Shown: positions 193-63,880 of the stretch, one piece after another
Layout: every line of letters starts with the position of its first letter
Position numbering within the stretch: position 1 is the stretch's first letter
DNA from: Boothiomyces macroporosus
Lineage: Eukaryota; Chytridiomycota; Chytridiomycetes; Rhizophydiales; Terramycetaceae
NCBI GenBank assembly: GCA_027604185.1
Contig: JADGKB010000039.1
Span: forward strand, 1-64,000
Direction of reading: 5' to 3'
DNA: 64,000 bases
Program-made: the position numbers and the translations under genes
Notes under the pieces: model-generated
What the model saw: only the letters and a program-made list of their open reading frames with translations
What the model was told of the DNA's origin: nothing
The model's database searches: none

Positions 193-2221
193 ATGCGGAA
201 AATACAGAAAATCTTGATTGCCAATAGGGGTGAGATTGCTTGCCGGATAATTAAAACTGCAAAGAAAATGGGAATAAAAACAGTCTCAGTCTATTCCAGT
301 GAAGATTCCAACTCTCTGCATGTTAGATTGGCGGACGAGTCTTACTTGATTGTAACTTTTTCTAAAATAGGGACCAGCAGAATCCAGACAGAGCTATTTG
401 AATTGGCAAAAGATATTGGACGTATTCAAGGCTTCTAATAGTGAAGCAATACATCCTGGATACGGATTTCTCAGTGAAAATTACAAATTTGTAGAAAAAT
501 TGGAAAGAGAAAACATTTCGTTCATTGGACCTAATAGCAAAGCAATGGCGATGATGGGAGACAAGATTGCGAGTAAACAGATTGCTGCTGAGGCAGGAGT
601 AAAGTCAATTCCAGGTTACAAGGGAGAAATATCAAGTGATCAACAAGCAATTCAAATTGGAGCCGAACTGGGATACCCAGTAATTATAAAAGCCAGTGCC
701 GGCGGAGGAGGTAAAGGAATGCGAATATGTTGGAGTGAAAAGGAGCTGCTCGAAAATATCAAGATTGCTAAAAGCGAAGCAGAATCGAGTTTTGGAGATT
801 CAAGAGTGCTGATTGAAAAATATTTGATTAACCCACGTCATATAGAGTTCCAATTGATTGGTGATCAATTTGGAAATGTAGTGTATCTACCCGAACGTGA
901 ATGTTCAATTCAACGAAGAAGCCAGAAAGTTATGGAAGAATCTCCTAGTCCTCACTTGTCACAGGAGCTTCGTGAAAAAATGGGTAAACAGGCAGTATTG
1001 CTTGCGAAAGCAGTTGGATATTATTCTGCAGGAACATGCGAATTTCTGGTGGATGGGGAGGATTTTTATTTTTTGGAGATGAATACCAGGCTGCAAGTGT
1101 AAATATTTTCTGAAGTAGTGAACATCCTATCACTGAAATGGTTGCTGGACTAGATTTAGTGGAAGAGATGATTAGAGTTGCAAGAGGAGAAAAGCTGCGC
1201 TTCACACAAGATGATGTAAAGATAAATGGTTGGGCAATAGAGTCAAGAGTATATGCGGAACATCCTACCACTTTTATGCCATCGGTTGGACTAGTGTCGA
1301 AATATTCTGAGCCACATATCAATGGGGTACGAAACGACTCTGGAATTACGCAAGGAACAGAGATATCCATGTATTACGATCCATTGATAAGCAAACTTTG
1401 TGTCCATGCAGAGAACCGGCAAATGGCTATAGAAAAAATGAAGGCTGCTTTGGATTCTTATGTGATTGAAGGTAGGGCATTTCTAATTAGGCGTGACAAA
1501 CAACATTCCACTTCTGCGAGATATACTAGAGCAACCATTATTTAATTCGGGAGATACAACCACCAACTTTTTGCCTTCAGTGTACCAGGACGGATTTTGC
1601 GGATACTCAATCAAAGAGCATGAAATATATGATATGGCAGCTTTTGCAGCTTTAATTTATTTGAAAAGGAAACAAGTAGAAACTAGTTGGGTGAGAGACA
1701 ATGCCATTGTGGCAAATCGTACGATCAATGACAAGCTCTTTATCACTGTAGGGGATAGGACCCTAGAAGTAAACATCAACAAATATAATGTGGATAGTTT
1801 GGAATGCGAAATAGAAAGCAAAATCTACAGGATTACCATGGCCGGGAACATGACCACAGTCAATGACCACACATATATACTTCAGCACTCTCCCACACAC
1901 CTTGGCTTTACCATACAGTTGAAAGGAACTAAATTTGACGTACCTGTAAAAACCCCTCTCCAGCATGCATTATCTGATCACTTGATGACAATACAAACAA
2001 ATATTAACAACAAAAACATTCAATCGCCAATGCCGGGTACTATATTGTCAATCAATTGCAAGCAGGACGAGTATGTTAGCAAGGGCCAAGTGCTATGTGT
2101 GATAGAGGCAATGAAAATGCAGAACATGCTCCGTTGTCCCAGAAATGGGATCGTGAAAAAGATCCATGTTAATGTAAACGAGCGAGTACTAGCAGACCAA
2201 GTAATAGTTTTGCTAATGTAG
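193..2221 (+). CDS. PCCA: Propionyl-CoA carboxylase alpha subunit (biotin carboxylase + biotin carrier)
   Basis: Exons 193-351, 371-1098, 1119-1471 and 1491-2221; introns of 19, 20 and 19 nt; 656 aa. The protein carboxylates biotin with ATP and bicarbonate; with PCCB it converts propionyl-CoA to methylmalonyl-CoA in mitochondria. Seen: N-terminal [23 protein letters not shown], the ATP-grasp loop [35 protein letters not shown] (restored by intron 2) and the biotinylation motif EAMKMQN near the C-terminus. EAMKMQN, the stretch [19 protein letters not shown] and the terminal domain fit propionyl-CoA rather than methylcrotonyl-CoA carboxylase. No clear mitochondrial presequence follows the ATG at 193. 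An ATG at 108 opens MLLNKLWSYRN, which looks like a presequence and could join codon 208 through a 67-nt intron; this is unproven. PCCB lies at 53517-55160. Confidence 0.93.
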
Positions 2222-2349
2222 TTGCTTATCGAACTAGAGAATGATCCACCTCTTGTAAAAAACGACAATGAAATATAATCGCAAACATTTCATCTAGTTG
2301 CAGATTTTACGCATTGTTGGTTAATATAATGGTATTTATTTTCAAAGAA

Positions 2350-2793
2350 TTATTCTTCCTCTGCCAGTTGGTAATGTAGTTTGACGCAGAGTGAGCATTG
2401 ATTGCATTCAACTCCAGCAATTCCATCTTCGAGCTGATCTTCTGTGACTATGTACATCCCTCCACATCTGCAGTCATATCTATAGGTTGAATTTTCGTCA
2501 TTGTATTCCATGTCATCCAAGTCTACGTCAGCCTGAACTGCTCCGGCTAAATTGGACTTTCTTAATAATTGGTCATACTCGAACCGCTTCTGTGTATCCG
2601 ACAGTACTTGGTATGCTGCATTAGTTTCAGATACCTTGCTGGATTTCATAAAACCTTTGGGGGTCGTGTTGACTCTTATCTGGATGAAACTGGTTAATTT
2701 GGGTTTTACTTTAAGACACAGTTGCTGATAGGCTTGTCGAATTTCCTTTAATGAGGCGGTATCTTTGATATCTAGGCGCTCATAATAATTCAT
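2350..2793 (-). CDS. DPH4: Diphthamide biosynthesis protein 4 (J domain + CSL zinc finger)
   Basis: Minus strand. Exons 2793-2710, 2689-2635 and 2615-2350; introns 2690-2709 (20 nt) and 2616-2634 (19 nt). Without splicing the J-domain HPD is missing; removing both introns yields HPDKSQHDPQ followed by FYEIQQAYQVLSD, a canonical helix II-loop-helix III. The C-terminal half has CRCGG and CNQCSLCVKLHY, the four-cysteine CSL (DPH-type) zinc site. Dph4 supports Dph3 and the first step of diphthamide formation on elongation factor 2. An open frame continues upstream of 2793, but the methionine there begins the conserved MNYYERLDI segment. The gene is divergent from the STE12-like gene. Confidence 0.9.
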   Translation of the reverse strand: MNYYERLDIKDTASLKEIRQAYQQLCLKVKPKLTSFIQIRVNTTPKGFMKSSKVSETNAAYQVLSDTQKRFEYDQLLRKSNLAGAVQADVDLDDMEYNDENSTYRYDCRCGGMYIVTEDQLEDGIAGVECNQCSLCVKLHYQLAEEE

Positions 2794-3126: not shown

Positions 3127-4586
3127 ATGGACCCAAACACAGACACTTACGACGAAGGCCATTTGGAAGGCTTTAAATTATTTTTATCGACAGCACCAGT
3201 GAACTGGAATCACAATGAAACAATAAGGAGATATCCTCTACCGAATGGAGAATCAGTTTCGTGCGTGCTCTGGAACGAACTCTTTCATATAACAGGAACA
3301 GACATTGTCCGCTCGCTAATTTATCGATTTGAATGCCTGGGAAGGAAAGTTGTAATGCAAAAGAAATTCGAAGAAGGGATATTCTCAGACCTGCGCAACC
3401 TCAAGCCAATGGCAGATTCCACCCTAGAAGAATCTCGCTCTCCATTCCTCAAATTCCTGTATGAAAACCAATGCATTCGAACTCAAAAGAAACAAAAAGT
3501 ATTTTACTGGTTTTCAGTCAAGCACGACAAGCTGTTCTTGGTAATTGGCGCTAATTTTAGGACGCATTAGAAAGAGATTTGAAAAGGGAAGCAGCCGGCC
3601 AGCCATCCTGCACCCAACCTAAAGTCCAAATGACGATGAGTCAGGCAATGGAGCAAGCCCGTCTCCATTGTTTACCATCAATTAATGCGATGCCTCCAGC
3701 ACAGCCTGTTAGACCACAGACACCTCAAATGAACATGATAAAAGAAAGCTATGACTATGTGCAACCACATCAATTAAATGGAAATATGGGCTCTGGCTCA
3801 CCAATGATGTATGGCTCATCACCACAAAGAAGACGCTCATTCTCGTCCGGAGGAGTTCACCTATCTCCACGCCAGAATATGCACATGTCACCAGCCATTT
3901 CGGCTCACTCTAATCATGTTACACATTCTCCAGAATTGGGAAATGCCAGCCCACAATTAAGTTTTATGCAACCAACTGCTAATCGTAATTATACAGCCAA
4001 CTTACCATCAATGTTTAATCCAGAATACAGCGCTGAATCCAAGCCAATGTTTTACAGAAATTTTGAACCAGTACAACCTGGATCAGAACCGAATCGCTCT
4101 CCATATCATCCACATAGAGGACGAGAAGGAAGAAGATCTTCGATTGGTGGGCAAACCGAAAAAACTCATGTCTGCCCATTTGAAACTTGTGGCAGACAAT
4201 TCAAGAGATTAGAACATTTGCGAAGACATGTAAGATCACACACTGGTGAAAAGCCATACGTTTGTACTGTTCCAGATTGTGGTAGATCGTTTGCCCGCTC
4301 AGATCACCTCACACAACACATGCGAACCCACGGTGATACTTTTCCAGACCACCAATGGAATGCTATAGATGAACAGCATCGGAATGGAGTAAGCACCTTA
4401 ATTCAGAATAATGGAGAATACATGCCTGAATATGACGTCAATGGTCAGCCAATTATGAAGCAAGAATTCACTGGTACTGGTTTAAATGAACAAATGGACT
4501 CCTTGATGGACGATATTCTGTCGCTAGAGCCTGACCTGGGGATTCCCTTTTCTTCTCTAGACCAAACCTCCTTGCTATCATATTGA
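3127..4586 (+). CDS. STE12: Ste12-like transcription factor with two C2H2 zinc fingers
   Basis: Exons 3127-3540 and 3561-4586 with one 20-nt intron (3541-3560); 479 aa. The intron splits the STE12 homeodomain-like region: the unspliced frame stops, but splicing gives KLFLDALERDLKREAAGQ. The N-terminal domain includes GLKLFL-like GFKLFLSTAPVNWN, NGESVSCVLWN and FYWFSVKHDKLFLDALERD. A low-complexity Ser/Pro/Met middle follows. Near residues 345-400 come two tandem C2H2 fingers, starting CPFETCGRQFKRLEHLRRH and CTVPDCGRSFARSDHLTQH with a TGEKPY linker. The C-terminus is acidic (DSLMDDILSLEPDLG) and may activate transcription. Ste12 plus C2H2 fingers is the architecture of most fungi outside Saccharomycotina. 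Inferred role: target of a mating/invasion MAP-kinase cascade. Confidence 0.93.
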
Positions 4587-4922: not shown

Positions 4923-5900
4923 TTATTGGACAACCAAGGCAGCGGAAGGTACAAGTCCCAACTCTTTAAGGGTCTGGTTTAAACTTGGACCATCGAGAAC
5001 TTTTCTAGGAAAAGTTTGCATTAATTTAAAGTCATTTGGATATTGCGATTTTACAAATTCATAGACAACAGATAGCTTATCTTCGGCATTGAACACTTTG
5101 GTGATTGGAGCACCATTTGGTACACGGATCTGGGTTAGTTTATCTTACTTGAATTCTCGCTTCTTGATAATCTTTGGTAGGCTGTTGAACGACTGGCGCG
5201 GCTGGCTGTTGCACAGCTAAAGGTTTTCCTTCAGCTAAACGCTTTCGCTCCTCCGCCTTTGTTAGTATTATTTACTTGTCGCTGTCTTTCGAGTTTATCG
5301 GCTTCCAACTGTTTTCTAACCCTTTCTTTGGCGATACGATCCTCTTCCTTTTGTCTTTTTCGTGCTTCCACTTGTTTTTGCATTTCCTCTTGCTGCAGCT
5401 TTTCCCTGATCAGCTGCATTTCAACTCCCGTTGCTCTCCTGATTGTCTCTTTTTGACGAGCTTCTTGCTCACGTTCAAGTCTCTTTTCTTCCCTACGAGC
5501 AGCAATCCTAGTCTCAAGCTCCTTGATCTTTTGCTTTTTTTCTTCTTCTGTCAATGGTTTGATTTGCGCTGTTGATTCAGAAAAGTTGACATGTCCAGTT
5601 TTTACAGCATGCACTAAATTAGCAGAATAATACTTTCCGCGGCACCTCCTACAATTAAATCAAGTTACCATCCCTGAGTAATTTACCGCAATCGTCACAT
5701 TTCAATGACTGCGCTGTTTGCTGATCAGCTGTAATTTCTCCATCGTCTTCTTCAGACTCTACATCTGGTTCATCTTGGTGAGCAAGTATCCAGTCCATGG
5801 CAGGTTGTAATCCGGCATTCTTTGTCTTCTTTAAAGCCTTCAAAACTTTTGCTTCTGGGAATCCCATTGAAATCAACGTCTCTTTGTCTCCACTCATCAT
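4923..5900 (-). CDS. UBA/UBX-domain protein (UBXN1/SAKS1-like), five exons including a 15-nt microexon
   Basis: Minus strand. Exons 5900-5669, 5648-5634, 5613-5276, 5256-5149 and 5129-4923. Introns: 5649-5668 (20), 5614-5633 (20), 5257-5275 (19, contains TACTAAC) and 5130-5148 (19). The UBA domain comes first (LISMGFPEAKVLKALKKT), then KCDDCGKLLRDGGAAEMHAV, KTGHVNFSES and LTEEEKKQKI, then a long charged coiled coil, then a UBX domain starting EARIQIRVPNGAP and ending GLVPSAALVVQ. The microexon 5634-5648 supplies GGAAE, matching this zinc-finger-like segment in relatives. Such proteins link ubiquitinated substrates to the Cdc48/p97 ATPase. Confidence 0.9.
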
Positions 5901-8309: not shown

Positions 8310-8332
8310 TAGCTTGAAAACAATTTTTCCAC

Positions 8333-8448: not shown

Positions 8449-9266
<818 letters not shown>

Positions 9267-29867: not shown

Positions 29868-30747
29868 ATGGCTCCGAAAACACTTGCCCAGAAACAAGAA
29901 GGTACTTTTCATTAACAGCAGAGTAACTGTATTTAACCAGAGTAAGCTAGCGAACATCTTAAAGAAATACGATGGTGTGGATAGAACTAGGAATAAAATC
30001 ATTACAGAGCTGGAGCCTCCAAAGCCAAAGCGGCCATTCACATCTGCGGGAATAAACACAGTCAAGGAGTGTGAGAAATGGAGAAAAGATATTGTGGATG
30101 AAATATTGGAAAAGATTGAGGAAATATCGGATCGTATTCTATAATTGATTTAGCAAATTTGGATGAGTATAAAGTAAGGGATACCAACGACGCAATCAAC
30201 AAGCTTATTAAAGAAAAGAGACACTGGGAGCACAAGATTATTGAACTTGGAGGACCGGATTATATTGTAATTTCAATTAACTCAGAAACGAGGAACTGTT
30301 GCGATTGAAGCTGGTGGAAGTACTGTTCCAGGTACCAAAGGATATAGATACTTTGGGATGGCGAAATACTTGCCCGGTGTAAAGGAGCTATTTGAACAAG
30401 CAGGTAAGTCACAGAAAATCATGATCTTTCAAGTGCAGACTAATGTTAGCGCAAATGCAACAAAAGATTGCCCCAGAAGAACTTGTACAGAGAGTAGATG
30501 CGGATTATTATGGCTTCAGGGATGAAGAAGATGGATTGCTACTGCAGTATGAATCTATGCTTCAGGCAAACAGTAGGGAGATACTAATGTAGAAAAAAAA
30601 GAAATTGTCAAAGACGACGACGGAACGTTTGATTTGGATTATATCGCACCTAAACGGCCCCCAACTTTTGAAGAAATTGAAGGGTGGATGGTAAAGAAGA
30701 GACAAAAAGAGTTGGAAGCAAAGTACTTGAACGGCTTGGAGGCTTAA
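29868..30747 (+). CDS. ISY1: Pre-mRNA splicing factor Isy1 (5' end uncertain)
   Basis: Secure exons: 29941-30133, 30154-30266, 30286-30403, 30450-30572 and 30593-30747; introns 20, 19, 46 and 20 nt. Motifs: KPKRPFTSAGINTVKECEKW, VRDTNDAINKLIKEKRHWEH, IIELGGPDY, GYRYFGMAKYLPGVKELFEQ, VDADYYGFRDEEDGLLLQYE and an APKRPPTFEEIEGWMVKKR tail. Isy1 is a Prp19-complex/spliceosome component. The start is unresolved: the ATG at 29868 is in another frame. The residues RNKK coded at 29890-29901, before a possible 39-nt intron (29902-29940), match the family's MARNxEK start, so a short first exon probably exists. The 46-nt intron is one of only two long ones here. Confidence 0.85.
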
Positions 30748-38392: not shown

Positions 38393-38588
38393 TTCTCTAG
38401 AAATTTTTTTCCAAATCGTTGTTAATTTATAACAGCAGCCACGTTTCAGCCATCAAATGCAACACATTGAGGGGCTGGGAGGGTAAAAGGGAGTGGCACT
38501 GTCACGTGAAAACAAAACACATCTTTATTTTCGTCACCACATTCTACAGCTGCTTTCCTCCGATTCTAAGATTTTGATGGTTCTACAG

Positions 38589-40981
38589 TTAGCTTTTTCT
38601 TACAGTGTATTGGTGAGGATTAGCCGTATTTTCCCGGTCTTGTAGATCTCCTGAGAGATTACTATTTTGCTTCTCTTGGTACACTTTTACCCCTGGTAGT
38701 CCAATCTGAGTTAATTACTATTACTGCTGTATTGGCGTTATACATTGTCGGAGTAATATTTTTCTGATCGCTAGGAGCTTCATGGTATAATTTTGCAATT
38801 GCAACATTCGCTTCATCCAATTTGGAGTACAGAGCAGTCTTTTTAGAGTCAAACTACCTTTGACCAAGGGCCTGGTTGGGTTTCTTGTTGTTTTTCAATA
38901 TTCTGGAGTGCTCTAAAGTCTCCGTTTGCAAAAGCTTTCGAAAGATTTTTGAATCTTTTGAGATACATGTAGCCTCTATCCAGCATGTTTGTAGTGTACG
39001 CTTGAGAAGATCTTGCGGTTTCGGTTCTATCTGGTATTGACGCTTTAATAATTCTGTTTTGTGAGTTTGTAACTGTTGGGACTTTTTCAGTATGCTGTCT
39101 GTGGAGCTTCTTTAATTCTTCCTCCTTTTGAGCCAATTCCAAAAGTCTCAAGTTTCTTTCCTTTTTGGCTTGTTTAGCTCTTCCCGCCAAAAACTCTTCA
39201 AACGTGCTGGTCTACCATTAAAAGTAATTGACCATATCTCTATACTCCATCGCCCTGCGTTCCATTTCTTTCTCCAGGAACTGGTTATTCTTTTCTAACT
39301 CTTGGACTTTTTTAGCCAAGTCTTGATTGATTCCAATGGAGGAATTGTACTTTGTGCTCACATCGTCAAACTCTTTTCTTAGGTTTGTCAAGTCCTTTTG
39401 TAAATTCAAAATTACATATGTCAATCGCTTGAGCATGTTTTCTATAGAATTCTCGCCTTCTCCCTTGGCATTCAAATTCAATCGGATAACTTTATGTCTC
39501 AATCGCTCTTTTTCTTGCCCAAGTTTAGTAATTTTGTCTGTCAATTCAGCAATTTTATGCTTCTGTAAACCAAATTGTACCTGATTTTCTTTTTCCATCT
39601 GTATTCTCATTTCATCCCGTTCTTGTATAGCTTTATTCTTGTTCTCGATAGTATTCATCAATTCCTTCATTCTTCCTTCAATATTTTTCAAGTGTGTCTG
39701 TAGCTTTTCAGTCTTTGACTCCAAAGAAACGTTTTGACGTTGGAGTAAAAGCATGACGTTCTTACTTTCTGATTCATGTTCTGATTTCACTCTTTCCACA
39801 TCCTTGGCATGTTCTTTACGAAGATTTTCAATATCCTATGATGAAAGCAAGTTTACCAGTTCATGTTTTTGCATAATACTCTGTAAATCCGAGCCTTCAA
39901 TTAACCCCATAATCTTTGCATCCTTTGTAATCATCATATCCATGTAGAATTTGTCTTTTGCTTGTATTACGTACATGATTTCCTGTTCATACCTGGATGC
40001 TTGTGAAGTGATCTCTTCTTCAAGCTTCACCATTTCAACATTAAACAGTATTTCCGTCGTGGTTCTATACTCGTCAAATTGTGATTGCATAGATGATAGA
40101 ATGTTCTAAGTTAGTTTGGTATAATACTTGGTATTCCATCATTGTACGTTTCTTTTCTTCAAAGCTATGATTCTTGTGATTCTCAAACTCTTCCTTTAAT
40201 TGATCATATTCATGTTTTTGGCGAGCTTGGAAGGATTCATTTTCAATCCTAGTTACCGATATGAATTCCTCATATTCGTCTCTGATTCCTTCAATCAGCC
40301 CTTCAACACTCTGCAGCTGATTTTGTTGCGCATTTTGAATAGCATTCGCCTCGTTGGCCAAACTAATCATTTGCAGTTTGTAATTTGCACACATTTGCTC
40401 TGCGTCCTGTAATTTTTGCAGTAACTGCGCTTCATCCAAAACCTCTTCATCGTTCGCTGAATTAACTAAAGGAACCTTGAGCAGCTAATTCCTCATCCTG
40501 GGCAATTCGTTTTTCTTTGTATTCTCTCAGTTCTTTTACCTCTGCTGTCAGTTCCTCTACCAAATTGGAAGCTTGTATTTCTTTTTCGGTTTCTTTCAAA
40601 AGATCTGCTCTCAGCTTATACAGCTCTTCTCCCATTTGAAATATTTCTGCCTCTTGTCTTTCAACAATGAATTTCATTTCCCCAGTGTCTCTTGTTGTGG
40701 ACTTGTCTTCCGCTACTTTGACATTTACATTCAGAACAGATGGCGTCTGAGCCAATCCAGGCTGAATTAATACCTGATTACTGTTTTCACATCCGCTCTA
40801 GCTGTAGTTTCTTTTAGTTTTAAAGCTTTGATTTCCGCGTCTGCCTCATCAAGCGCCATTTTGACATTATGCAGCTATGATTAATTCAGATTACTTCACG
40901 ATGCAGACTTGTTATTGTTGCTCTCAGCTTATTGTTCTCCTTGAACAAATGCTGAATGAAATCTGCATCCGCCTTGTCCAT
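38589..40981 (-). CDS. Long coiled-coil protein, nine exons
   Basis: Minus strand. Exons 40981-40895, 40874-40782, 40761-40476, 40456-40128, 40105-39857, 39835-39233, 39211-38858, 38838-38725 and 38705-38589; introns 20, 20, 19, 22, 21, 21, 19, 19 nt; 743 aa. Nearly the whole protein is heptad-repeat coiled coil, ending with a more globular segment (MLDRGYMYLKRFKNLSKAFA). Donors GTTCCT and GTCAAT are unusual. The last intron is optional on paper: unspliced, the frame stops at 38668 or so after REAK; spliced, it runs to 38589. I do not recognise the family; a cytoskeletal or centriole/cilium-associated protein is conceivable but unproven. Confidence 0.75.
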
Positions 40982-42306: not shown

Positions 42307-43570
<1,264 letters not shown>

Positions 43571-44061: not shown

Positions 44062-46276
44062 ATGACCACATTCGCGTCTTTCATCCTGAAGCAAGAGGTT
44101 GAGTCTCAACTGGAAGACCAATGGGCCACAGATATATCGTTTGAAGAAGTAGATGGTAGTTTTGCTCTTACCCAGATAGGATTGCATCTTTTCAACAGGA
44201 TCCATTTGTAAGACAGGCTTTACAAAACAATATTCCGCTTCGTACCTATTCCACCCAGATTCAAGCAGAATTGGCGACACACCAGGATGCGCTTGCACAT
44301 CAACACTTGAGGCAGGTCCATCAAACTTTGGAATTGAATAATATTTTAGACGAAATGGATAAAGTATTGGGCGATATTGATGGTCTACTGGGAGGATACA
44401 AGCGGGATTTGCAAAAGATGAATCATGAAATAGAAAATATTCAGAAAGAATCAAAAGAACTAGGAATGAGGCTTGAAAATAGAAAGGTAAGGATATACTG
44501 ATTCAGAATGCTGTGAAATATTCAAGCGAGCTCTTGGACGGAATCGTAATCAGCCCAGATATTATCAGAAAGATTTGCGAAGGTGAAATTAATGAATTTT
44601 TTATACACCACTTGCAGGAACTGAATGCCAAAATGGCGTATGTGGTCGCGAATGAAGATAAGCAAGTAAAAGCATTCAAAAATATCGGCCCAGAGCTTGA
44701 AAGGCTGAGGATAAAGGTATTTAATCCTTTAGATAGGCTGCGGATAAAATTAGAGAGTTTTTGCTAAAGAAAATTGAATCACTAAAAGCTGCGAATACAA
44801 ATATAGCGCTTATTCAGCAGAACGCACTATTAAAGTACAAGGAGCTGTTTTGGTTCTTGATGGAAAGATTTACGCCAGTTGGGTTAGAAATCCACGCAAA
44901 TTATATCGTAATTGTAAGTACTTACTTTTGTACGGCATTTGACAAGTATTTAAAAGTAATGAATAAGCTGCAAAGCAGTCTAGCTGATAAGAACGATGTT
45001 ATTGGGGCTGATGATGGTTCGAAGCGAGGTTTGTTTGGAATGCGAACAATCAAAGACACCACAAACCTGTATACTCTAGGAGGTAATTCGTTGATAATAA
45101 GATCGCATTAATCTTGTGAATGGGAACGATTCTGGAATAATTGTTCCTCATCTAGCGGAGGAAAAGAACCAAAAGTTTACCTTTGAGCAAATATTCAAAT
45201 CGGTTTCCAGGTTAGTTTTGGACAATGCATGCTCAGAATACATCTTTACCAATGAATTCTTTCAGGAAAGATCAATCAAAACGAATGCAGAATCCATGTC
45301 TTTCTTTAACGAAGTTTTTGATCCAACGCTAAAGATTATCCAGACATTCTTGAAGCAGAATATTGATCAGACTCACGATGCAATCAGTATATTAATATGT
45401 ATCCGTTTGAATACTCAAAATATTAGACTTTTACAGGCACGAAGAATACCATGTTTGGAAAACTTTTTGAATTTGGTAAATATTATGCTCTGGCCAAGGT
45501 TTCAGACCATAATGGGTTTGCATATAGACAGCTTGAAAAAGGCAGAGCCAAGAAAGCTTCTGTCTGTCAAGGAACCCCAACCACATTATGTAATGTAAAC
45601 CTAATAGTAGATCATTCGACGCTATGCTGAATTCAGTGCATCTGTGCTGACTCTAAATGAAGGCTATGACGATGCTCTTTTGATCAATAGGTAATGTCTT
45701 TCTAAATAGCTTATCCCGGCTGAGAACCGAATTAGAATCATTGATGTACCGATTGGCGGCAGAGTTCCCAGACAAGAAGGTTTCACTCGCATTTTGGATA
45801 AACAATATCGATTTGATTCAAACTATTCTTAATGAACATTCAGCTTCCTCCTTGGATCAAGAGAAAATCTATTTTGAAAACTTGATGAAGCAAAAACTGG
45901 ACGAATTTGTAGAATGGCAGCTTTCACCTTATTTGAAATCAATGATGGAATATGTAGTAAAAGTGGAAACCAAGCAAGCCGCGACAAACAAAGGTAGCCA
46001 AGTATTCACCCAGATACACTAGAGTTACTCGCCCAAGAATTCAACAACACTTGGAAAAACAACATCCAGAAATTCAACGATACGATTATGCAAATTTTCC
46101 CTAATTTTACCAACGGCCAGAAAGTGCTCCAACAAACATTGACTGCCTTTGTCCTTTGGTACAAAAGATTCTTGGGGATATGGGAAGGGTGCTTTAAAAA
46201 CGTGAAGAGTAAGGTCCAGCCTGTCGGAATCCAATCTATATTGGTGGAGATTAAAAAATACAAGTCTACTTTTTGA
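44062..46276 (+). CDS. VPS52: GARP complex subunit Vps52
   Basis: Exons 44062-44155, 44176-44486, 44507-44716, 44737-45082, 45102-45589, 45611-45690, 45710-45993 and 46014-46276; introns 20, 20, 20, 19, 21, 19, 20 nt; 691 aa. Coiled-coil N-terminus with NNILDEMDKVLGDIDGLLGG, YKRDLQKMNHEIENIQKESK; SSELLDGIVISPDIIRKICE, GPELERLRIKAADKIREFLL, TLGDRINLVNGND restored by splicing; C-terminal helical domain ending GIQSILVEIKKYKSTF. Vps52 with Vps51/53/54 tethers endosome-derived vesicles at the late Golgi. All seven introns are needed to keep one frame. Confidence 0.92.
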
Positions 46277-49279: not shown

Positions 49280-49875
49280 ATGAACAACGAATATGCTTTT
49301 TCAATTCGACAGCAACCAAAGAAAGGCAAGGAAGCTGGACTAACAAAGCCCTATATCAAGAGCTTAATGTAAATCAAAACTAAATTAGTACTCCATTGCT
49401 GATTCTGCAGTTGGAATTTACGCAGGAAATGAGTAGAGAACAAGTATGGTAGATCTAACTATAGCTAATTCGAATGCGATTCCTTTGCAATATCGTACTG
49501 CTGGGCGAGGACGATATGACTGAGCATACACTAGTCGCCAGTGTCTCTGCGATTAAAAGGTATCAGGAAAACATATTTGGAAAGACGATAGTGGAGGGAA
49601 TTGTTCTTAAAGACCCAGAGGACGGCAAGCTCAGAATCTTTTTTATCTTTAATGACCTGTATATAAAGACGCCCGGATTTTACAAATTCCGCTGTCAACT
49701 GATAGACCTGACTACTCCAGATGTACAGTCCCATGAAATCATTACAGAATCCTTTCAAATTTATCAGCTGAAATCCTTCATAAAAGAAAGCACTTCGACT
49801 ATGCTAACAAGAGCATTTGAACTGCAGGGAGTGGAGATGAAGACTAAGCGAAGACAAGCGTCCACCTGGTACTAA
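49280..49875 (+). CDS. Velvet-domain protein 2
   Basis: Exons 49280-49368 (89 nt), 49389-49443 (55 nt) and 49465-49875; introns 20 and 21 nt; 184 aa. Motifs: YAFSIRQQPKKGKEAGLTKP, PLLILQLEF, LVASVSAIKRYQENIFG, GIVLKDPEDGKLRIFFIFND, LYIKTPGFYKFRCQLIDL and STSTMLTRAFELQGVEMKTK with a basic tail. Same intron positions as the other copies; only the first exon is 6 nt longer. It is the only copy on the plus strand and converges on copy 3. Likely a DNA-binding or heterodimerising regulator. Confidence 0.92.
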
Positions 49876-50129
49876 ATAAATGTGAAATTATTTAATGTTA
49901 TATAACAATGGCTTGATTGGAACACGGAGCGGGTGAAAACTCCGAGGAACGAAAAAAATTTTCTCGTTGGGAGGCTTCTGCTGAAAATGCAATTTTTGAT
50001 TCGGTATTTTTCCACTCAGGACCAAGAGTGAAATAAAGAAGGACTGCAGGGAAAATTTGAAAAAAATACTCATACAACACAAACCACCAACAAGCAATCT
50101 ATTCCGCAGGTAAAGGGTTCCGTAGTCAT

Positions 50130-50700
50130 TCAGCATAGCTTTTTATTCAGAGTAATTCCTTGCTTTTCAAAAGATCGCATTAGCATCGTTAGTGATCTGT
50201 CTCTCACAAAAGCCTTGATTCCAAAGATTTCAAATTGCTGGGTTTCTAATTCCACAAGTTTTACAGTTGGCGAGTTAAAGTCAAGTAGCTGGCATTTGAA
50301 CCGATAGCACCCTGGAGTCTTGATGTACAAATTATTGAAAATAAAAAATATCCTCCATTTTCCATCTTCAGGATCTTTGAGGACTACGCCTTCCTGAATG
50401 GTGTCTCCAAATACGTTTTCCTGGTATCTTTTTAAAGCAGCAACACTTCCAACAAGAACATGCTCGGCATTGGAATCTTTGCCATATAGAATTACGTTAC
50501 ATAGGAACCGCATCTGTTCCAGCTAGATTAGCGCAAGATACCTGAGATTTACGCATATCTTGCTCATGTTCGAGCTGTAAGATTAACATTGGATGTCTAC
50601 AGTTAACGTGAGAATACATGTGCGACCTTACGTAAGGTTTGGTCAAGCCTGCCTCCTTTCCTTTTATTGGATGTTGTCGAATCTTGAACGAGTAACTCAT
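50130..50700 (-). CDS. Velvet-domain protein 3
   Basis: Minus strand. Exons 50700-50618 (83 nt), 50596-50542 (55 nt) and 50522-50130; introns 21 (50597-50617) and 19 nt; 176 aa. Motifs: YSFKIRQHPIKGKEAGLTKP, LVGSVAALKRYQENVFGDTI, VVLKDPEDGKWRIFFIFNNL, YIKTPGCYRFKCQLLDF, LTMLMRSFEKQGITLN. The first intron is the only multiple-of-three intron in the window without an in-frame stop, so its retention would insert seven residues (YSHVNCR) and keep the protein open. Confidence 0.92.
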
Positions 50701-51512: not shown

Positions 51513-52039
51513 CTACAGTAACAAAATAAACCTCGGCATTTGATTGAGACACCTAATAGTTTATATTTAGTTCAATCCGAAACACTGTTTAATGGGAACA
51601 ACTAAACAACTATTGCTTGGTAGATGAAAAGCTGGATGTCACTTGGACGACTTGTTCAACCCCAAAAGTATGCCAAAGTCGCTTTCAAGATCACAGAAAC
51701 TAATGTTTTGGTTGTATTACAAGTGATCTCTTTGGAAACCGATTTCATGTCTTAACGAGAAAAGATCAGTGTTCGAGATTCTTATTGGTAACGAACGGAC
51801 CCAGTATTTCTAAAACAAGTAACAACCGGGCGGATGGCAGCATATATCTGTGCGTCTATTATTTCATTACTCTGCAAATTATTGAGCTTGGTATGATCCT
51901 TATTTTTTAATTTAAAAAACTAACCAAACTGAAAAAAATTTTGTTTGAGCGGAAACTGGTGGGTTTGGTAATTCGTTCCAATACAATATATAAAAATAGT
52001 CAAAAATATATATTAACCATACCGGATGATTACCTTTTT

Positions 52040-52619
52040 TTAAATTTTGTTTCTTCTGGTTTTGAATTCGATTCCTTGAAGTTCAAAGGATCGCGTCAAC
52101 ATTGTTGATGTGCTTTCTTTGATATACTCTTTCAGCTTGAATATTTGGAAAGGAGCGGTATCCAATTCATGAAAAGTTACATCGGTAGAATTCAAGTTGA
52201 TGAGTTGGCAACGAAAGCGATACTTGCCCGGTGTCTTGATGTATAAATCATTGAATATAAAGAATATTCGCAATTTGCCATCTTCGGGGTCTTTGAGAAC
52301 TACGCCTTGGACGATAGTAGAGCCAAATATGTTTTCCTGGTATCTTTTGACTGCAGACACACTTCCCACAAGCGTATGTTCCATTTGGTTGTCTTCACCA
52401 ATAAGAACGATATTACATAGAAAGTTCATTGCTTGAAGCTTTTATAAGAAAGAGACTTACCTTGGATTTGGATAGTTCTTGCTGAAAATCCAATTGTAGG
52501 ATTGGCATAGGACATCTAAGGTTAAGCTACACTTACATCTGACTCTTTATATAGGGTTTTGTCAACCCAGCTTCTTTTCCTTTCTTTGGTTGCTGTCTGA
52601 TAGTAAATTTAGAAATCAT
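52040..52619 (-). CDS. Velvet-domain protein 4
   Basis: Minus strand. Exons 52619-52537 (83 nt), 52515-52461 (55 nt) and 52438-52040; introns 21 and 22 nt; 178 aa. Motifs: FTIRQQPKKGKEAGLTKPYI, LVGSVSAVKRYQENIFGSTI, GVVLKDPEDGKLRIFFIFND, LYIKTPGKYRFRCQLINL, STSTMLTRSFELQGIEFKTR and a basic tail RRNK. It is closest to copy 2 by eye. Together the four genes form a local velvet expansion spanning 6.2 kb. Confidence 0.92.
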
Positions 52620-53516: not shown

Positions 53517-55160
53517 TCATAGCGGGATATTACCATGCTTCTTTTTTGGTTTGCTAATCTTTTTTCTTGCTAGCATTTTCAAATCGCTAATAATTCTATT
53601 ACGAGTTTGTGATGGGACAATGATGTCGTCCAAATACCCTTTGATAGCCGCAGGAAGCGGGTTTGAAAACTTGTTTGCGTAATCATTCTCAATCTTGGCT
53701 ACTATTAAAAGCTATTACTTTTATCTTTGACATTTCTAAAAATAATTTCCACAGCTCCTTTAGCTCCCATTACTGCGATCTCACCGGTTGGCCAAGCGTA
53801 ATTTGCATCTGCTTTCAAGTGTTTAGAACTATTTTTTAGATAATTATTACCTCATAACATCATACGCTCCTCCATAGGCCTTTCTGGTAATAACAGTAAT
53901 TTTTGGGACAGTTGCTTCAGCATATGCGTAAAGCAGTTTTGCACCATTCCTGATAATACCTCCATGTTCTTGCTGCACTCCAGGCAAAAATCCGGGTACA
54001 TCTACCAGGGTTACCAATGGAATATTAAAAGCATCACAAAATCTAACGAATCTCGCTGCTTTTATGGAAGCATTAATATCGAGCGCTCCAGAGAGTTCAA
54101 GCGGCTGATTTGCTATGATTCCTACAGTTGCACCATCAAATCTTGCAAAGCCTGTAATGATATTGGATGCAAAATCAGGCGATAACTCGTAAAAAGTGCT
54201 CTTGTCGACAATCTGTATCAAATTAAGAGTACCTCATGAATAATATACTTCATATCATATGCCTTTGAGGAATCAGTTGGAATAAAATAATCTAATGAGG
54301 AGCATATTCGATGACTATGTTATTAGAGTGTAATTACGGTGAGTCTTCCGTTGGCTTAACTGGTGCAGGGTCATTATTCGATAGGGGCAAGTAGTTGAAG
54401 AAATCTCTAATATTTTCCAAGGCTTCTAGCTCATTGTTAAATGCCAAATGGGCTACTCCAGATTTTGTAGTATGTATGTCAGACCCTCCCAATTCTTCAT
54501 GTGTAATCAATTCATTTGTAACTCCTTTGATAACCTCTGGTCCTGTTACATACATGTATGATGTGTTTTTTACCATAAATGTAAAATCCATCAATGCCGG
54601 TGAATAAACCTAGTCTTAACAATAATTACTGCTCCACCAGCACATGGACCCATAATTAATGATATTTGTGGAACAACACCCGATGCCTCGACATTTTTGA
54701 GGAATATATCCGCAACTCCAGCCAAGGAATCCACTCCTTCTTGAATCCTAGCACCTCCAGAGTCGTTTATCCCAATTACTGGTGCACCAACCTGCATCGC
54801 TTGCTCGATAACTTTGCATAATTTGAATGCATGGGCTTTCGATACACTACCTCCAAAAACAGTTGCGTCTTGAGCATAAACAAACACAAGACGATCATTG
54901 ATCTTCCCATACCCAGTAACGATAGAATCGCCATAAATCTTGTTTTCTTCCATTCCAAAATCTGTGCATGTGTGCTGAACAAACGAATTATACTCGACGA
55001 ATGAACTTTGATCCAACAGCAAGCTGATTCTTTCTCTCGCCGTGAGCTTCCCTTTCTGGTGTTGCTGTAGCTGTTTCAAATGTCCGCCTCCATTTAGTGT
55101 TTGTAGTTTTAAATTATTCAGTTTTTCCAGTGTGAAGTAACACCGTCGAAAGATTCTCAT
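53517..55160 (-). CDS. PCCB: Propionyl-CoA carboxylase beta subunit (carboxyltransferase)
   Basis: Minus strand. Exons 55160-54630, 54609-54338, 54314-54233, 54212-53851, 53828-53719 and 53698-53517; introns 20, 23, 20, 22, 20 nt; 512 aa. Motifs: [128 protein letters not shown] and [15 protein letters not shown]. The pattern and the [11 protein letters not shown] segment identify PCCB rather than MCC beta. N-terminus [20 protein letters not shown] is a plausible mitochondrial presequence. The last intron has tandem acceptors TAGTAG (17 or 20 nt, both in frame). Confidence 0.94.
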
Positions 55161-59743: not shown

Positions 59744-62183
59744 ATGGACTGGAGCGTAAAGAATATAATCGCACTGATTGCAGATCAGGATACGATCTTT
59801 GATGAATTCCTGTTAAAAAAGTACCTTTTGACTAATGCAGAACGAATGCTGTGATTGTTTTCCACTGCAAGAGCAAGCTGAATTACTCCATCATCACTAC
59901 AGGGTTATCCAAAATCATACAGATTAAATGGGATCATACAGGCAATTATTTGATGATATTGGACGACAAGCTAGACCTTGGAATATTTAAGCTCGGCGAA
60001 ACGATTCAGAGCTTCAATATAGTCAAGCAAGTAAAGTTACAAGAGTTTCCGCATAAATTAGTATGGTATCAACCAGTCAAAGAGGTAAATCTTTGTTAAA
60101 CTAGTACTCACCCTCTGGGTTGATACAATATGGACCGGATTTTTTGTTTGGAAGTTATGCGTTCATTTCTGTTGGGCAGTCCTCTGTTTATGTATATTTT
60201 GAAACTATGGAAGGGGAGTTTACCTGCATTTCATGTAGCTTACCTGTTGAAATTGCTACTGCCCAAGTGCTTGTTAAAGGTTAAGATTACTAATATTAGA
60301 AAATTCAATTCAAGTGCTGGGGATTTCTACAGAAATTGTTATTGCTACCGTGCTAATCGATCTGGCAAATCAAAAGGTTGGAGTTGGAAATATAGAAAGA
60401 GTGCAATACCAACAGCCAATCAAGTTTATTGAAATATCCAACAATTTCTTTACAGCTGTATCGGAGGTTATGGATCAGAGCTTGGTTCAAGTATATCAGA
60501 ACGACAATGGATGGAAATTAGTTAACGAAAAATACCTATCTAGTATATCGTGCTTGATGGGATTGAAGGATTATATATTTGTTGGATACATGGACGGAAC
60601 GAGTGAGTATCGGATACTTCCTTCTTTAGACATGAAGGAGTTAGGCAACATCATTGTCCCTGGTACACTACCTCCAGATGACAGCAAGGATGACATGCAA
60701 ATTGATGATTTTAGCAACTTTTTCAGCAATGAACCAAAATATCCGACAGTCGAAAAGACACATTTATTTAAAATGAACTACAAGCCTATTTTACCAGTTT
60801 CCTCGCCAAATGGAATACACACAATACAACTTGGAGTGGATAATTTTGGAAAATCAGAGCTTATTGTGATCAGCAAAGAAAAGATTAAAGGCTTTAAATT
60901 GAACCCTAACCTAATTGAGAATAACTTGACAAATTTGGCTTCGTTTGTAGTATGCAGTTCACTTAACAAACACGATTTGTTGGATATTTCGATATTGATT
61001 AGAGAATCAATTAAACAAGGTGAGCTTAAACTGATACAGATTTAATAGAAAAGTTTATTGTGTGTGTAGTAATGAAATATGAAGAACTTCAGGACATTAG
61101 CAGTCCTATACCGTTCGCCAAGGTTCAAAATCTCGAAGATCACATCGATTTATTTCAATTGCTATTCTATTCAAACAAGTATTTACGTATTAATTCAGAA
61201 TACTGCTCCCGAATTCTTGGCCAATGAGAAACTCTTTTAATATTCTTGAGTTATGTTTAATCAAAGACCTATTTTGCAGATCTCTCACGAATCAATTCAA
61301 AGTTTTGGAATGGATAGGTAATGATTCTTAATATAGATTCAAAGATTGCAAACAAAGTGACTCAAGTGAATGATTTTCACAACAAATCAGAGCTCCAGTT
61401 TCAGAAAGGAGCTATTCATCATATGGTACCCTTGGCTCTGTGGGTGCAAGATTTTGCTTCCTACGTAATTCTACACTTGCATTCATTTTTTGTTCGCACT
61501 GAAATAGATTTAAAACGTAATCCAATCTAACTGTAGAAAGCTCCCCAATTATGTTTGTACTAAACAGAAACTGCAGAAGAATAATGCTTCAGCTGATGTA
61601 TTTTGTAAAACTCTTCCAGTTGAATTTGGAAGCTATTAACCAGCAAATAGCTAGTATTCCACTAAATACGTCCAGTATAGAAGCACATAGCAGGAATTCT
61701 TATCTCCAAAGAATTGATTCAACCTTAAAAAAAGATAGACCAAACTTGGACGCGATGATCAACATGTTCCTTGAATTTAATTCTCTTGATGCACTAGTAA
61801 CCGATTCGCCGTCACTACTGAAGGCTGAAGCCACATTGTTACTGCAGGCAACTATAGAGCCCCATTTCCTACCTTCTTTGGACTCGATAAAACCAAGGTT
61901 CAAAGCAATGTTTGAAAAGATTTATCAAAAACCCGAAAACGAAACCGTAGCTCTACTCATCAACAGTCCAAAACGACACTTGTGCAAAATAGATGTTATT
62001 ACAAAGCACAACATTCGAAATACTTCCAAATTGAATCGATGCACCAGGTGTTTACAGCACACTCAAGTAGACATTGAACTAGATGAGCCGTTTGCAATGT
62101 TTCAGAACATGCCACCGTGGCAAAATGCATATCAGGATATTTGCTTTTGCGGAGGGCATTGGGCACCTGAACCAAGTCAATAA
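59744..62183 (+). CDS. MED16: Mediator complex subunit 16 (Med16/Sin4)
   Basis: Exons 59744-59820, 59841-60084, 60105-60279, 60300-61019, 61040-61178, 61199-61317, 61337-61516 and 61537-62183; introns 20, 20, 20, 20, 20, 19, 20 nt (donors GTTAAG and GTGAGC are unusual); 766 aa. The N-terminal propeller has IIQIKWDHTGNYLMILDDKL; the helical middle has ILLPNSWPMRNSFNILELCL and NQFKVLEWIDSKIANKV; the C-terminal zinc region reads HLCKIDVITKHNIRN, RCTRCLQHTQ and PWQNAYQDICFCGGHWAPEP, diagnostic of Med16. It belongs to the Mediator tail that contacts activators of RNA polymerase II. Confidence 0.9.
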
Positions 62184-62206
62184 AAGTGCATATATTTAAA
62201 TAAAGG

Positions 62207-63880
62207 TCAATTTATAACTGGCAGGTTTGGATCTTGAGCGAAAAAGACTGTATAAAGTCGCTTGGCAACGCTTTCACCTGTTCTATACTCTTTTCCTGTA
62301 GAAGCAGTTTCGTAAGGTATACCCGCTAAATCCTTGAAGCTTTTCACTTGTTCCAGGAATTTACCCAGAGTAGGATACTTTTTGCTGATCCCAATAGCCA
62401 TCCTCTCTGTTATACCGGGTATCTTTTCAATCATTTTTACCCACGTATCTTCTACATCTTTACCAGATTTTATAGAATCTCCGAAAGCAAGCTGGTTATA
62501 TTCCGCTGATTTGACACTACAATTAGGACTGGATTACTATTGGTCTGGGAATATTGCAATCTGCTGGAGAAATGAAATTAAAAATCCGTGCAAGTCTACT
62601 TTTGTGCATGTATGGATTTTACATTTCCCTTTTCCATAAATTTGCAATAGTATCAGCTCTCTTTCAATAGTTTTTTTATCTGGACCGTCCAATATATCAT
62701 TAGTCTTTCTTTTTTTCCTTCTTTCGTTTGTAAGCTGCTCTCGTATTTCATCATTGCGAATTGCTATTTCTGCACTGCTATATGATCTGTAATATTCTGG
62801 TAGACCAACAACGAAAAAGATTATTGTATTACCTTGAAATTCCGATGTGCAATCTGTAAAATATTTGACAAGAGTGTTATCCTTTTTTAAAATCTGAGCA
62901 ATTTCAGTTGCTGATAGCAAGATCATTGTATACGGAAGCCTTTCTAACCGAATATTGCAAGGATTCCATGATCCGTTTTCGAAATCATACTCTCGATCAA
63001 CTTTGTGGGTCAAAGAGAGCGAGTTTCTGATTTTTGGAGCTACTTTTCTAATCTCCACACCAACTTCTTCCAGCGAGTTTTTGAGGTATGGATCTTTTTC
63101 ATCCCACTCTGTACATAAATGAACAATTAGTTCCCTGGTACACTCGATCTTTTGCCTTAACCTATTCGCGGTCTGTAATGCCTTTTTCCCAATCTGTTCC
63201 ATTTCTAAAGCTTCCTTTTCTCGTTGTTTTTCAGATTTCTTTGTTTCCTTTTCTTCATCCCGAAGTTGTTTTTGCTTTAATTTAGTTTCCAATCGAATAT
63301 TTCTTTCCTGTTCTCGTTTCAACTGTCTCTCTAATCTCTCCATTTTCTTTATGGTTTCCCTTTCCGTTCTTTTTTGTAATTTTTCAATGGATTTGGAAAT
63401 ATCTGTTTTACTTATGAGATCTTGTTCTTTTTGTAATAGCTCTTGGTGTGATTTCAATACCGGCTGTGAATTGTTTATAGATGACTCAAAATCAGAATCA
63501 TCAGAATCAGATAGTCTGCATATATCGATATTTGAATTCAATCTTGTCCTTGAATCGTAATGCTTTGATATTGTCCTTGAATCGTTCTCCTTCAAACTAG
63601 ATTCCAGTGAATCCAATTCGAAATCATCTGTAAAATCGTTTGGCCCTTCCCAACAGTCAAAATCAAAATTTGGTGATTGCTGGAATGTGTTTCTACTCTG
63701 GAAAGGAGATTTTGACTGGTAAGATTGAGCTCCACTAAACGGAGAGCTAGATTGATTGGGTAAAGTCAGAGAACAGTCCTCTTTCGATTTATCATTAACG
63801 AACCCATCATCATCCGAATCCAAAATAATCACATCATTACTATTCTTTGTCGGCAAACTTTCAAAATCAGAGTCGATATC
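62207..63880 (-). CDS. EME1: Structure-specific endonuclease subunit Eme1/Mms4 (5' exon missing)
   Basis: Minus strand. Exons 63880-62538 and 62516-62207 with a 21-nt intron (62517-62537). An acidic, Ser-rich start (VIILDSDDDGFVND) and a long basic coiled coil precede an ERCC4-like nuclease fold (NTIIFFVVGLPEYYRSYSSA; RKKRKTNDILDGPDKKTIER) and a C-terminal helix-hairpin-helix part (MIEKIPGITERMAIGISKKY). The ERCC4 motif ERKxxxD is not conserved, as in the non-catalytic Eme1 partner of Mus81. No ATG lies in frame before 63880, where an acceptor TAG is seen, so a short first exon lies upstream, possibly within or beyond the window end. Confidence 0.82.

What the first reader, a model, noticed from the sequence alone, without database searches (positions are those of the whole stretch)
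193..63880. Genome-wide ultrashort spliceosomal introns, mode 20 nt
I resolved 105 introns in 34 genes; 103 are 18-24 nt (1, 29, 41, 18, 10, 3, 1 for 18 to 24 nt). Each restores a conserved domain that is otherwise frameshifted or stopped (for example HPD in DPH4, Walker A in RPT3, CGGHW-joined frames in MED16). Typical fungal introns are 50-100 nt; comparable lengths are known from chlorarachniophyte nucleomorphs (18-21 nt), Paramecium (about 20-33) and Stentor (15-16). I know of no fungus described with this as the standard intron size. The short space requires the 5' splice site, branch point and acceptor almost to touch, so the spliceosome must tolerate this.
Basis: partly seen in the sequence, partly recalled or inferred. 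Interest (0 to 1): 0.95.

Follow-up and report, generated by a model that had tools for sequence, protein, structure and literature searches.

The report
A fungus with 20-letter introns
In the chytrid fungus Boothiomyces, almost every intron appears to be only about 20 nucleotides long, close to the smallest that spliceosomes are known to remove, even though the parts of its splicing machinery that could be checked look largely ordinary.

Summary
The window is 64 kb of contig C39 of Boothiomyces macroporosus (Rhizophydiales, Chytridiomycota). A gene finder given no intron length (uniform 10-200 nt, GT..AG only) peaks at 19-21 nt. Self-trained, it introns in 264 kb, 432 of them 17-25 nt (mode 20). 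Eleven other dinucleotide pairs and 50 kb of phage T4 give no such peak. Without gene models, GTA-N7/8-YTAAY-N1/2-YAG is 26-55 times over background, while gaps of 2-6 stay at background, so the putative branch A sits at nt 14-15, 5-6 nt before the intron end. Extrapolation gives about 25,000 introns. U1, U2 and U6 look canonical; SF1, U2AF2, Slu7, Prp18, Yju2 and Cwc25 are present. ISY1, in the window, lacks the conserved MARNxEKA N-terminus, the region reported non-conserved in the ciliate Stentor (15-16 nt introns). Tiny-intron genomes are known, so this is a new member of that kind; my searches of open papers (capped lists) showed none for a chytrid. No RNA was examined.

The parts
352..370 (+). 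19-nt intron, PCC-alpha
   Evidence: junction ungapped vs PDB 9wkr_A
1099..1118 (+). 20-nt intron, PCC-alpha; restores LQVEHP
1472..1490 (+). 19-nt intron, PCC-alpha; restores EGVTNN
2201..2221 (+). 21-nt intron, PCC-alpha
2616..2634 (-). 19-nt intron, DPH4-like J-domain gene (gene named by eye)
2690..2709 (-). 20-nt intron, DPH4-like gene; HPD motif restored
29868..30747 (+). ISY1 gene (spliceosome branching factor) with N-terminus MAPKTLAQKQE.. in place of MARNxEKA; five ~20-nt introns and one of 46 nt (30404-30449)
29902..29942 (+). two adjacent ~20-nt introns (29902-29921, 29923-29942) around a 1-nt exon; alternative reading 17 nt + 4-nt exon + 20 nt, or one 49-nt intron
   Evidence: junctions here not confirmed by most homologues
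42310..42330 (+). 21-nt intron, RPT3, after codon 1
42844..42864 (+). 21-nt intron, RPT3; restores GPPGTGKT (Walker A)
43165..43187 (+). 23-nt intron, RPT3; restores VKVIMATN; not used in deposited protein P0006
43357..43378 (+). 22-nt intron, RPT3; restores [13 protein letters not shown]0006 uses a farther acceptor
43456..43477 (+). 22-nt intron, RPT3
53699..53718 (-). 20-nt intron, PCC-beta
53829..53850 (-). 22-nt intron, PCC-beta
54213..54232 (-). 20-nt intron, PCC-beta
54315..54337 (-). 23-nt intron, PCC-beta
54610..54629 (-). 20-nt intron, PCC-beta
49280..49875 (+). velvet-like paralogue 1 (named by eye), introns 49369-49388 (20) and 49444-49464 (21)
   Evidence: same positions and phase as the two paralogues below
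50130..50700 (-). velvet-like paralogue 2, introns 50597-50617 (21) and 50523-50541 (19)
52040..52619 (-). velvet-like paralogue 3, introns 52516-52536 (21) and 52439-52460 (22)
38544..40981 (-). coiled-coil-like protein gene with eleven introns of 19-22 nt
44062..46276 (+). large gene (VPS52-like by eye) with seven introns of 19-21 nt

Best explanation
These are true U2-type spliceosomal introns, about 25,000 in the genome, compressed to a nearly fixed unit: GTAATT-type donor, 7-8 free nucleotides after GTA, a YTAAY branch motif whose A is mostly nucleotide 14 or 15, 1-2 free nucleotides, YAG. The spliceosome most likely recognises donor, branch site and acceptor together as one unit (intron definition with a ruler). 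The donor pairs with U1 and then U6, the branch motif pairs with U2, and a lariat loop of about 14-15 nt with a 5-6 nt tail is made. The sharp cut-off at 14 nt is most simply the smallest 5'-splice-site-to-branch span this spliceosome normally accepts. Shown here: the introns' sequence anatomy and spacing, frame and domain restoration, genome-wide spread, canonical-looking U1/U2/U6, presence of the tested protein factors, and the altered ISY1 N-terminus. Inferred: that RNA is spliced at these sites, that the branch A is the one marked, that 14 nt is a steric limit, and that the ISY1 change helps the tight loop fit.
For: Uniform-prior gene finder peaks at 19-21 nt and converges to 432 of 472 introns at 17-25 nt; 11 of 11 other dinucleotide pairs and phage T4 show no peak at 19-21 nt; the sample without the window reproduces it. 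Gene-model-free grid: 60, 50, 32, 28 matches in four neighbouring cells, mean 1.09 per cell over 1,891 cells; spacing shorter by one (k=6) gives 0-2. Branch motif 4.1 bits vs 2.3-2.5 in shuffled interiors; branch A at nt 14/15 in 349 of 432, 5-6 nt after it in 351 of 432. PCC-beta 5/5, PCC-alpha 4/4, RPT3 4/5 junctions inside ungapped alignments. Three paralogues keep both intron positions and phases while lengths differ by 1-3 nt. Introns divisible by three carry an in-frame stop in 80 of 103 vs 65.4 (sd 4.1) with shuffled phases, P about 0.001 (2,000 shuffles); others at expectation, as expected if retained introns are policed by NMD. U1, U2, U6 found. Six of six splicing protein families searched are present: Slu7, Prp18, SF1, U2AF2, Yju2, Cwc25; 6 of their 7 decoded models (Cwc25 at two identical loci; Yju2 the exception) are themselves split by 19-24 nt introns.
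Against: No RNA was examined. 33 of 432 introns have their best-scoring branch motif at nt 9-13, below the 14-nt edge, and 50 at nt 16-19; in the 369 best-scoring introns, 16 are at nt 9-12. These may be wrong motif picks or real exceptions to the limit. The stop test can be inflated because stopless 3n introns are harder to detect, although few strong 3n decoys remain in exons (2 at score 8 or more, 0 at 12 or more). U5 was not found; since a spliceosome needs U5, that search is taken as insensitive. The U1 match is just under the Rfam cut-off (68.8 vs 69.5 bits) and the U2AF2 match, found exon-wise, is under its curated cut-off (230.7 vs 310.3 bits). 40 of 472 calls exceed 25 nt; most look like errors by eye, but a few at 34-50 nt have the same branch spacing and may be real. 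A first naive count of GTAAGT/GTATGT-type donors to the next AG showed no clear 20-nt peak.
Confidence: 0.96

Rival explanations
1. Assembly or sequencing errors (indels) mimic introns.
For: Frame breaks are what one would see; none specific.
Against: Errors would not place GTA, YTAAY and YAG at fixed spacing, nor give uniformity over 21 contigs, nor shared positions in three paralogues.
Confidence: 0.01
2. The segments stay in the mRNA and ribosomes skip them (translational bypassing), or DNA is eliminated somatically (as for ciliate IESs).
For: Short segments interrupting frames; no RNA evidence excludes it directly.
Against: Donor, branch and acceptor signals match U1/U2/U6-based splicing, those RNAs and six of six searched splicing protein families are present, and the in-frame-stop bias fits NMD of retained introns.
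Confidence: 0.02
3. They are minor (U12-type) introns, which also lack a pyrimidine tract and have a close branch site.
For: Branch site 5-6 nt from the intron end in most.
Against: Donors are GTAATT-like, not ATCCTT (donor motif of U12 introns recalled); no U12 RNA at E up to 1 (no positive control, so weak).
Confidence: 0.01
4. Real introns, but the short length is only drift in a compact genome and needs no change of the spliceosome; the ISY1 N-terminus is a coincidence.
For: Slu7 and Prp18 are present, the Yju2 start and the Cwc25 GGG plug are kept; snRNAs look canonical. ISY1 of Kappamyces, Globomyces and Gorgonomyces is also divergent in deposited models and their intron lengths are unknown to me.
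Against: A sharp lower edge at 14 nt and uniform spacing look like a limit, not plain drift; the same ISY1 region is reported non-conserved in Stentor (PMC9505925, section 2.6).
Confidence: 0.45

Closest known systems
Chlorarachniophyte nucleomorph introns (18-21 bp; as stated in PMC10245619, passages seen)
   Same: Almost identical length range; many introns
   Different: A relic endosymbiont nucleus with a reduced genome and about 800 introns; here a fungal nuclear genome of 15.2 Mb with an estimated 25,000
Stentor coeruleus introns (15-16 nt; PMC9505925: abstract, part of section 2 covering 2.1-2.3, sections 2.5 and 2.6, and table passages seen)
   Same: Fixed branch A position, 5-nt tail, canonical U1/U2 recognition motifs, ISY1 N-terminus not conserved
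   Different: Here branch A mostly at nt 14-15, not 10-11; Cwc25 GGG plug kept; Slu7 and Prp18 present (the Stentor table lists both as N/A)
[quoted passage not shown] start of the abstract of PMC5014332 in listing)
   Same: Ultra-short introns as the rule
   Different: Ciliates; a few nt longer
Mikrocytids (16-17 nt introns; PMC10245619 passages)
   Same: Narrow length range, conserved motifs
   Different: Rhizarian parasites with 224 predicted introns in M. mackini and a strongly reduced spliceosome
Other fungal introns (Cryptococcus neoformans mean 63 bp, S. cerevisiae mean 397 bp; PMC8476143 passages)
   Same: Fungal spliceosomal introns
   Different: Three times longer or more on average

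Membership tests
U2-type spliceosomal introns | GT donor and AG acceptor with extended consensus | tested here: met
   AAG|GTAATT..., YAG, and 11 other dinucleotide pairs without a peak
U2-type spliceosomal introns | branch motif complementary to U2 GUAGUA | tested here: met
   YTAAY; U2 with GTAGTA in both copies
U2-type spliceosomal introns | U1, U2, U4, U5, U6 RNAs in the genome | tested here: inconclusive
   U1 (just under the Rfam cut-off), U2, U6 found; U5 not found by a search in which nothing rang; U4 not searched
U2-type spliceosomal introns | removed from RNA through a lariat | not testable with these tools
   no RNA data at hand
Tiny-intron genomes (nucleomorph, Stentor, mikrocytid type) | narrow length distribution below about 25 nt for nearly all introns | tested here: met
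   432 of 472 calls at 17-25 nt, 383 at 19-21
Tiny-intron genomes (nucleomorph, Stentor, mikrocytid type) | genome-wide | tested here: met
   20 of 20 sampled stretches from 20 contigs
Stentor-type modified branching factors | ISY1 N-terminus not conserved | tested here: met
Stentor-type modified branching factors | Cwc25 glycine plug lost | tested here: not met
   MGGGDLNLKKSW kept
Stentor-type modified branching factors | Slu7 and Prp18 not found | tested here: not met
   both present
U12-type introns | ATATCC/GTATCC donor | tested here: not met
   commonest +3..+6 are AATT, AATA, AAGT, AACT; motif of U12 donors recalled

The most novel reading that the evidence does not exclude
Loss of the ISY1 N-terminal clamp motif is the molecular change that lets a spliceosome close a 14-nt lariat. 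It arose independently in Rhizophydiales fungi and in ciliates, and predicts tiny introns in every lineage that has lost MARNxEKA (Globomyces, Kappamyces, Gorgonomyces included). The 14-nt edge is the physical lower limit of an otherwise complete fungal spliceosome.
Probability: 0.2. Interest if true: 0.88.

Novelty: new member of a known kind. Interest (0 to 1): 0.68.

Why it matters
How small an intron can be, and what in the spliceosome sets the limit, is open. The tiny-intron organisms named in the papers I saw are ciliates, relic algal nuclei and reduced parasites. A chytrid fungus in which six of six searched splicing protein families and U1, U2 and U6 were found (U5 not, by an insensitive search) gives a comparative case: relatives in the same order can be compared factor by factor. 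There is a practical side too: gene predictors that penalise very short introns will mis-annotate such genomes (inference), and the deposited RPT3 protein departs from its homologues at two of five introns.

Tried and rejected
Loss of second-step factors (Slu7, Prp18), predicted because the branch-to-acceptor distance is short: refuted, both present. Loss of SF1 or U2AF2: refuted. Loss of the Cwc25 plug as in Stentor, or a changed Yju2 start: not seen. Minor-spliceosome introns: unlikely (donors). A naive count from GTAAGT/GTATGT-like donors to AG gave no clear peak at 20 nt; the commonest donor turned out to be GTAATT. Exonic decoys (intron-like units left in predicted coding sequence; sense vs antisense vs mean of synonymous shuffles): 42 vs 75 vs 65 at score 6 or more, 10 vs 28 vs 28.5 at 8, 3 vs 10 vs 9.0 at 10, 2 vs 4 vs 2.7 at 12. 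This hints at selection against mis-splicing, is nearly gone at the highest score, and is partly circular because the gene finder removes such units.

Literature: the searches showed no paper on tiny introns in a chytrid. Several matched more papers than were listed (11: 20 of 23; 15: 20 of 95; 31: 20 of 21; 32: 20 of 902; 36: 20 of 42; 56: 12 of 28; 69: 25 of 4,494), so this is not proof of absence. PMC5364385 and PMC13391722 passages give no intron lengths, and PMC3207900 has no match for the intron terms. Intron lengths of relatives could not be tested: no eukaryote DNA other than this genome was at hand.

The ISY1 comparison covers the best 120 of 348 hits: 71 start MAR[NS]; 48 do not; 1 is partial. 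Of the 48, two start MARD/MART and most begin at or near the downstream ML.RF stretch, which looks like starts annotated too late and is uninformative (this includes Batrachochytrium P0126 and Geranomyces P0127). The clearly different ones include P0121, P0122, P0123 and P0153 (Rhizophydiales by record name) and P0205 (organism unnamed). Nineteen introns of 5'-incomplete gene models were left out of the stop test, 413 of 432 used. The last window model (62207-64000) is cut by the window's end and was printed out of frame by my script.
Full report
What the window is. The window is bases 1-64000 of contig C39 (111,803 bp) of a 15.2 Mb, 216-contig genome. A protein search with the spliced RPT3 returned P0006, 26S proteasome subunit 6B of Boothiomyces macroporosus, on a contig of 111,803 bp. 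A script reproduced P0006 letter for letter from the window DNA. The species belongs to Terramycetaceae, Rhizophydiales, Chytridiomycota.

Observation, tested without the answer built in. I wrote a gene finder (coding frames on both strands, introns with explicit length) and started it with a uniform intron length between 10 and 200 nt and only GT and AG as splice signals. After self-training it converged on 472, of which 432 are 17-25 nt: 1, 5, 102, 183, 98, 27, 11, 4, 1. With trained coding statistics but the uniform length prior, GT..AG gives 35, 73 and 32 at 19-21 nt, and each of eleven other dinucleotide pairs gives 0-7 at each of these lengths. Phage T4 (50 kb) gives no peak. The 200 kb without the window gives the same peak on its own (15, 33, 18 at first, 69, 140, 74 at the end). 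The window alone starts weakly (4, 10, 2) and ends at 27, 41, 12.

Window counts. Coordinates: 352-370, 1099-1118, 1472-1490, 2201-2221; 2616-2634, 2690-2709; 3541-3560; 5130-5148, 5257-5275, 5614-5633, 5649-5668; 7725-7744, 8670-8688, 9115-9133, 9489-9507; 11219-11237, 11844-11863; 12492-12511, 13036-13054; 13783-13802, 13880-13899, 14024-14043, 14173-14192, 14647-14667, 14850-14870; 17136-17155, 17766-17789, 19165-19185, 19459-19479; 21183-21203, 21290-21308, 21406-21424, 21684-21702, 21930-21949, 22121-22140; 24261-24283, 24403-24422, 24543-24562, 24891-24910; 26071-26089, 26477-26497; 29902-29921, 29923-29942, 30134-30153, 30267-30285, 30573-30592; 31036-31054, 31106-31124, 31188-31205, 31338-31356, 31603-31621, 32244-32263; 32688-32711; 34454-34473; 36999-37019, 37211-37232, 37476-37496; 38583-38603, 38706-38724, 38839-38857, 39212-39232, 39395-39415, 39560-39580, 39836-39856, 40106-40127, 40457-40475, 40762-40781, 40875-40894; 41195-41216, 41840-41859; 42310-42330, 42844-42864, 43165-43187, 43357-43378, 43456-43477; 43850-43869; 44156-44175, 44487-44506, 44717-44736, 45083-45101, 45590-45610, 45691-45709, 45994-46013; 49369-49388, 49444-49464; 50523-50541, 50597-50617; 52439-52460, 52516-52536; 53699-53718, 53829-53850, 54213-54232, 54315-54337, 54610-54629; 56798-56817, 57945-57963, 58124-58142, 58240-58259, 58306-58326, 58454-58474; 59821-59840, 60085-60104, 60280-60299, 61020-61039, 61179-61198, 61318-61336, 61517-61536. 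Some models fuse neighbouring genes through false long introns, so gene counts are rough.

Anatomy. Consensus AAG|GTAATT; position +5 is T in 47% and G in 18%, although the U1 5' end reads ATACTTACCT. The branch motif YTAAY carries 4.1 bits against 2.3-2.5 in ten sets of shuffled interiors. The putative branch A is nucleotide 14 or 15 in 349 of 432 and is followed by 5 or 6 nt in 351 of 432; 33 of 432 have it at nt 9-13. A count that uses no gene models, GTA-N{k}-YTAAY-N{q}-YAG over both strands, gives 60, 50, 32 and 28 for (7,1), (7,2), (8,1), (8,2) with a mean of 1.09 per cell. The rows k=2 to k=6 (q 0-10) stay at 0-3, so there is a sharp lower edge at 14 nt for consensus branch motifs. Of 40 predicted introns over 25 nt, 14 have a branch motif 4-7 nt before the end (background 6.6% of AG sites). 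A few of these, at 34-50 nt, may be real longer introns whose extra length lies before the branch site.

Independent support. PCC-beta (introns of 20, 23, 20, 22, 20 nt) aligns to a solved mitochondrial PCC beta chain (7ybu_C) with 5 of 5 junctions in ungapped stretches, and PCC-alpha to 9wkr_A with 4 of 4. RPT3 aligns as one block to each of eight fungal homologues across four of its five junctions; ISY1 is mixed, with two junctions clean in 7 of 7 homologues, one in 5, one in 4 and the two N-terminal ones in 1. Three velvet-like paralogues share both intron positions and phases, with lengths 20/21/21 and 21/19/22. Introns whose length is a multiple of three have an in-frame stop in 80 of 103 cases, against 65.4 (sd 4.1) when phases are shuffled (P about 0.001); the other classes sit at expectation, 66 vs 67.7 and 111 vs 113.4. 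This is the direction expected if retained introns are destroyed by NMD (the Paramecium precedent is recalled). Detection bias could contribute.

Machinery. U2 (two copies), U1 (just under the Rfam cut-off) and U6 are found and their recognition motifs look canonical. U5 and U12 were not found; the U5 search rang nowhere and is uninformative, and the U12 search has no positive control. Slu7, Prp18, SF1, U2AF2 (230.7 bits exon-wise, under its cut-off of 310.3), Yju2 and Cwc25 are present. Their decoded genes contain introns of 19-24 nt, except Yju2, which has none. Yju2 starts MAERKVLNKY, and Cwc25 has MGGGDLNLKKSW directly after a predicted, probably spurious, N-terminal extension. ISY1 lies in the window at 29868-30747. 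Its start is MAPKTLAQKQE.., whereas a beetle, a jellyfish, a moss, an ascomycete and two other chytrids have MAR[NS]xEKA (71 of the 120 best hits start MAR[NS]). The neighbouring gene on the other strand starts at 29827, leaving only 40 bp, so an upstream first exon is unlikely. ISY1 of Boothiomyces sp. JEL0838, Globomyces, Kappamyces and Gorgonomyces also lacks the motif in its deposited models. PMC9505925 (section 2.6 read) reports that in Stentor the ISY1 N-terminus, which in other eukaryotes projects into the active site and touches the intron backbone, is not conserved. PMC8022279 (passages) describes the Isy1 N-terminal domain as a clamp that docks the branch helix. The shared change in two unrelated tiny-intron lineages is suggestive, no more.

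Mechanism, with what is shown and what is inferred. Shown: sequence anatomy, spacing, machinery genes. Inferred: joint recognition of the three signals, a 14-15 nt lariat loop, no room for a pyrimidine tract between branch and acceptor (so U2AF2 must bind upstream of the branch site or not contact the intron in the usual way), helicases that normally pull on RNA downstream of the branch site having to hold the 3' exon, and the ISY1 change making space.

Scale. 325 short introns in the 200 kb outside the window extrapolate to about 24,700 in the genome; 20 of 20 stretches contain 4-30.

Novelty. Tiny introns as the rule are known from nucleomorphs (18-21 bp), heterotrich ciliates (15-16), mikrocytids (16-17) (PMC10245619 passages) and other ciliates (about 25). 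PMC8476143, an analysis of 644 fungal genomes, names no fungus in this range in the 12 passages I saw. My searches of the open library showed no report for a chytrid, but several lists were capped. Papers outside that library, including any genome paper for this strain, were not readable, and the deposited annotation itself already uses some 20-22 nt introns. I therefore call it a new member of a known kind, in a kingdom where I found none described.

Noticed in passing
L004, L002, L003 (U1 and both U2 genes): All three share TTAAAATGAAA near the RNA's 3' end, a possible snRNA 3'-end box.
   Followed up: no
window 29902-29942: Two adjacent 20-nt introns in ISY1 leave a 1-nt exon (or a 4-nt exon with a 17-nt intron); the deposited JEL0838 protein P0121 instead fits one 49-nt intron here (my reading from this genome's DNA).
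   Followed up: partly
window donors and L005-L024: Donor +5 is T (47%) rather than G (18%) although the U1 5' end is canonical; +4 A is favoured. The cause is unknown.
   Followed up: partly
L043 (C49:3194) and L044 (C100:4789): The Cwc25 locus occurs twice, identical over 3,288 bp, near two contig starts: duplicated contig ends or a recent duplication.
   Followed up: no
window 43165-43187 and 43357-43378: The deposited RPT3 protein (P0006) does not use these two introns as given here and lacks IMATN and [10 protein letters not shown]; other deposited proteins of this genome may be wrong in the same way.
   Followed up: partly
window 49280-52619: Three velvet-like paralogues lie within 3.4 kb, two on the minus strand and one on the plus strand.
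   Followed up: partly
P0205 (metagenome protein, organism unnamed, 149 kb contig): ISY1 with a divergent N-terminus (MGYVPASKKE..); a candidate for another tiny-intron organism.
   Followed up: no
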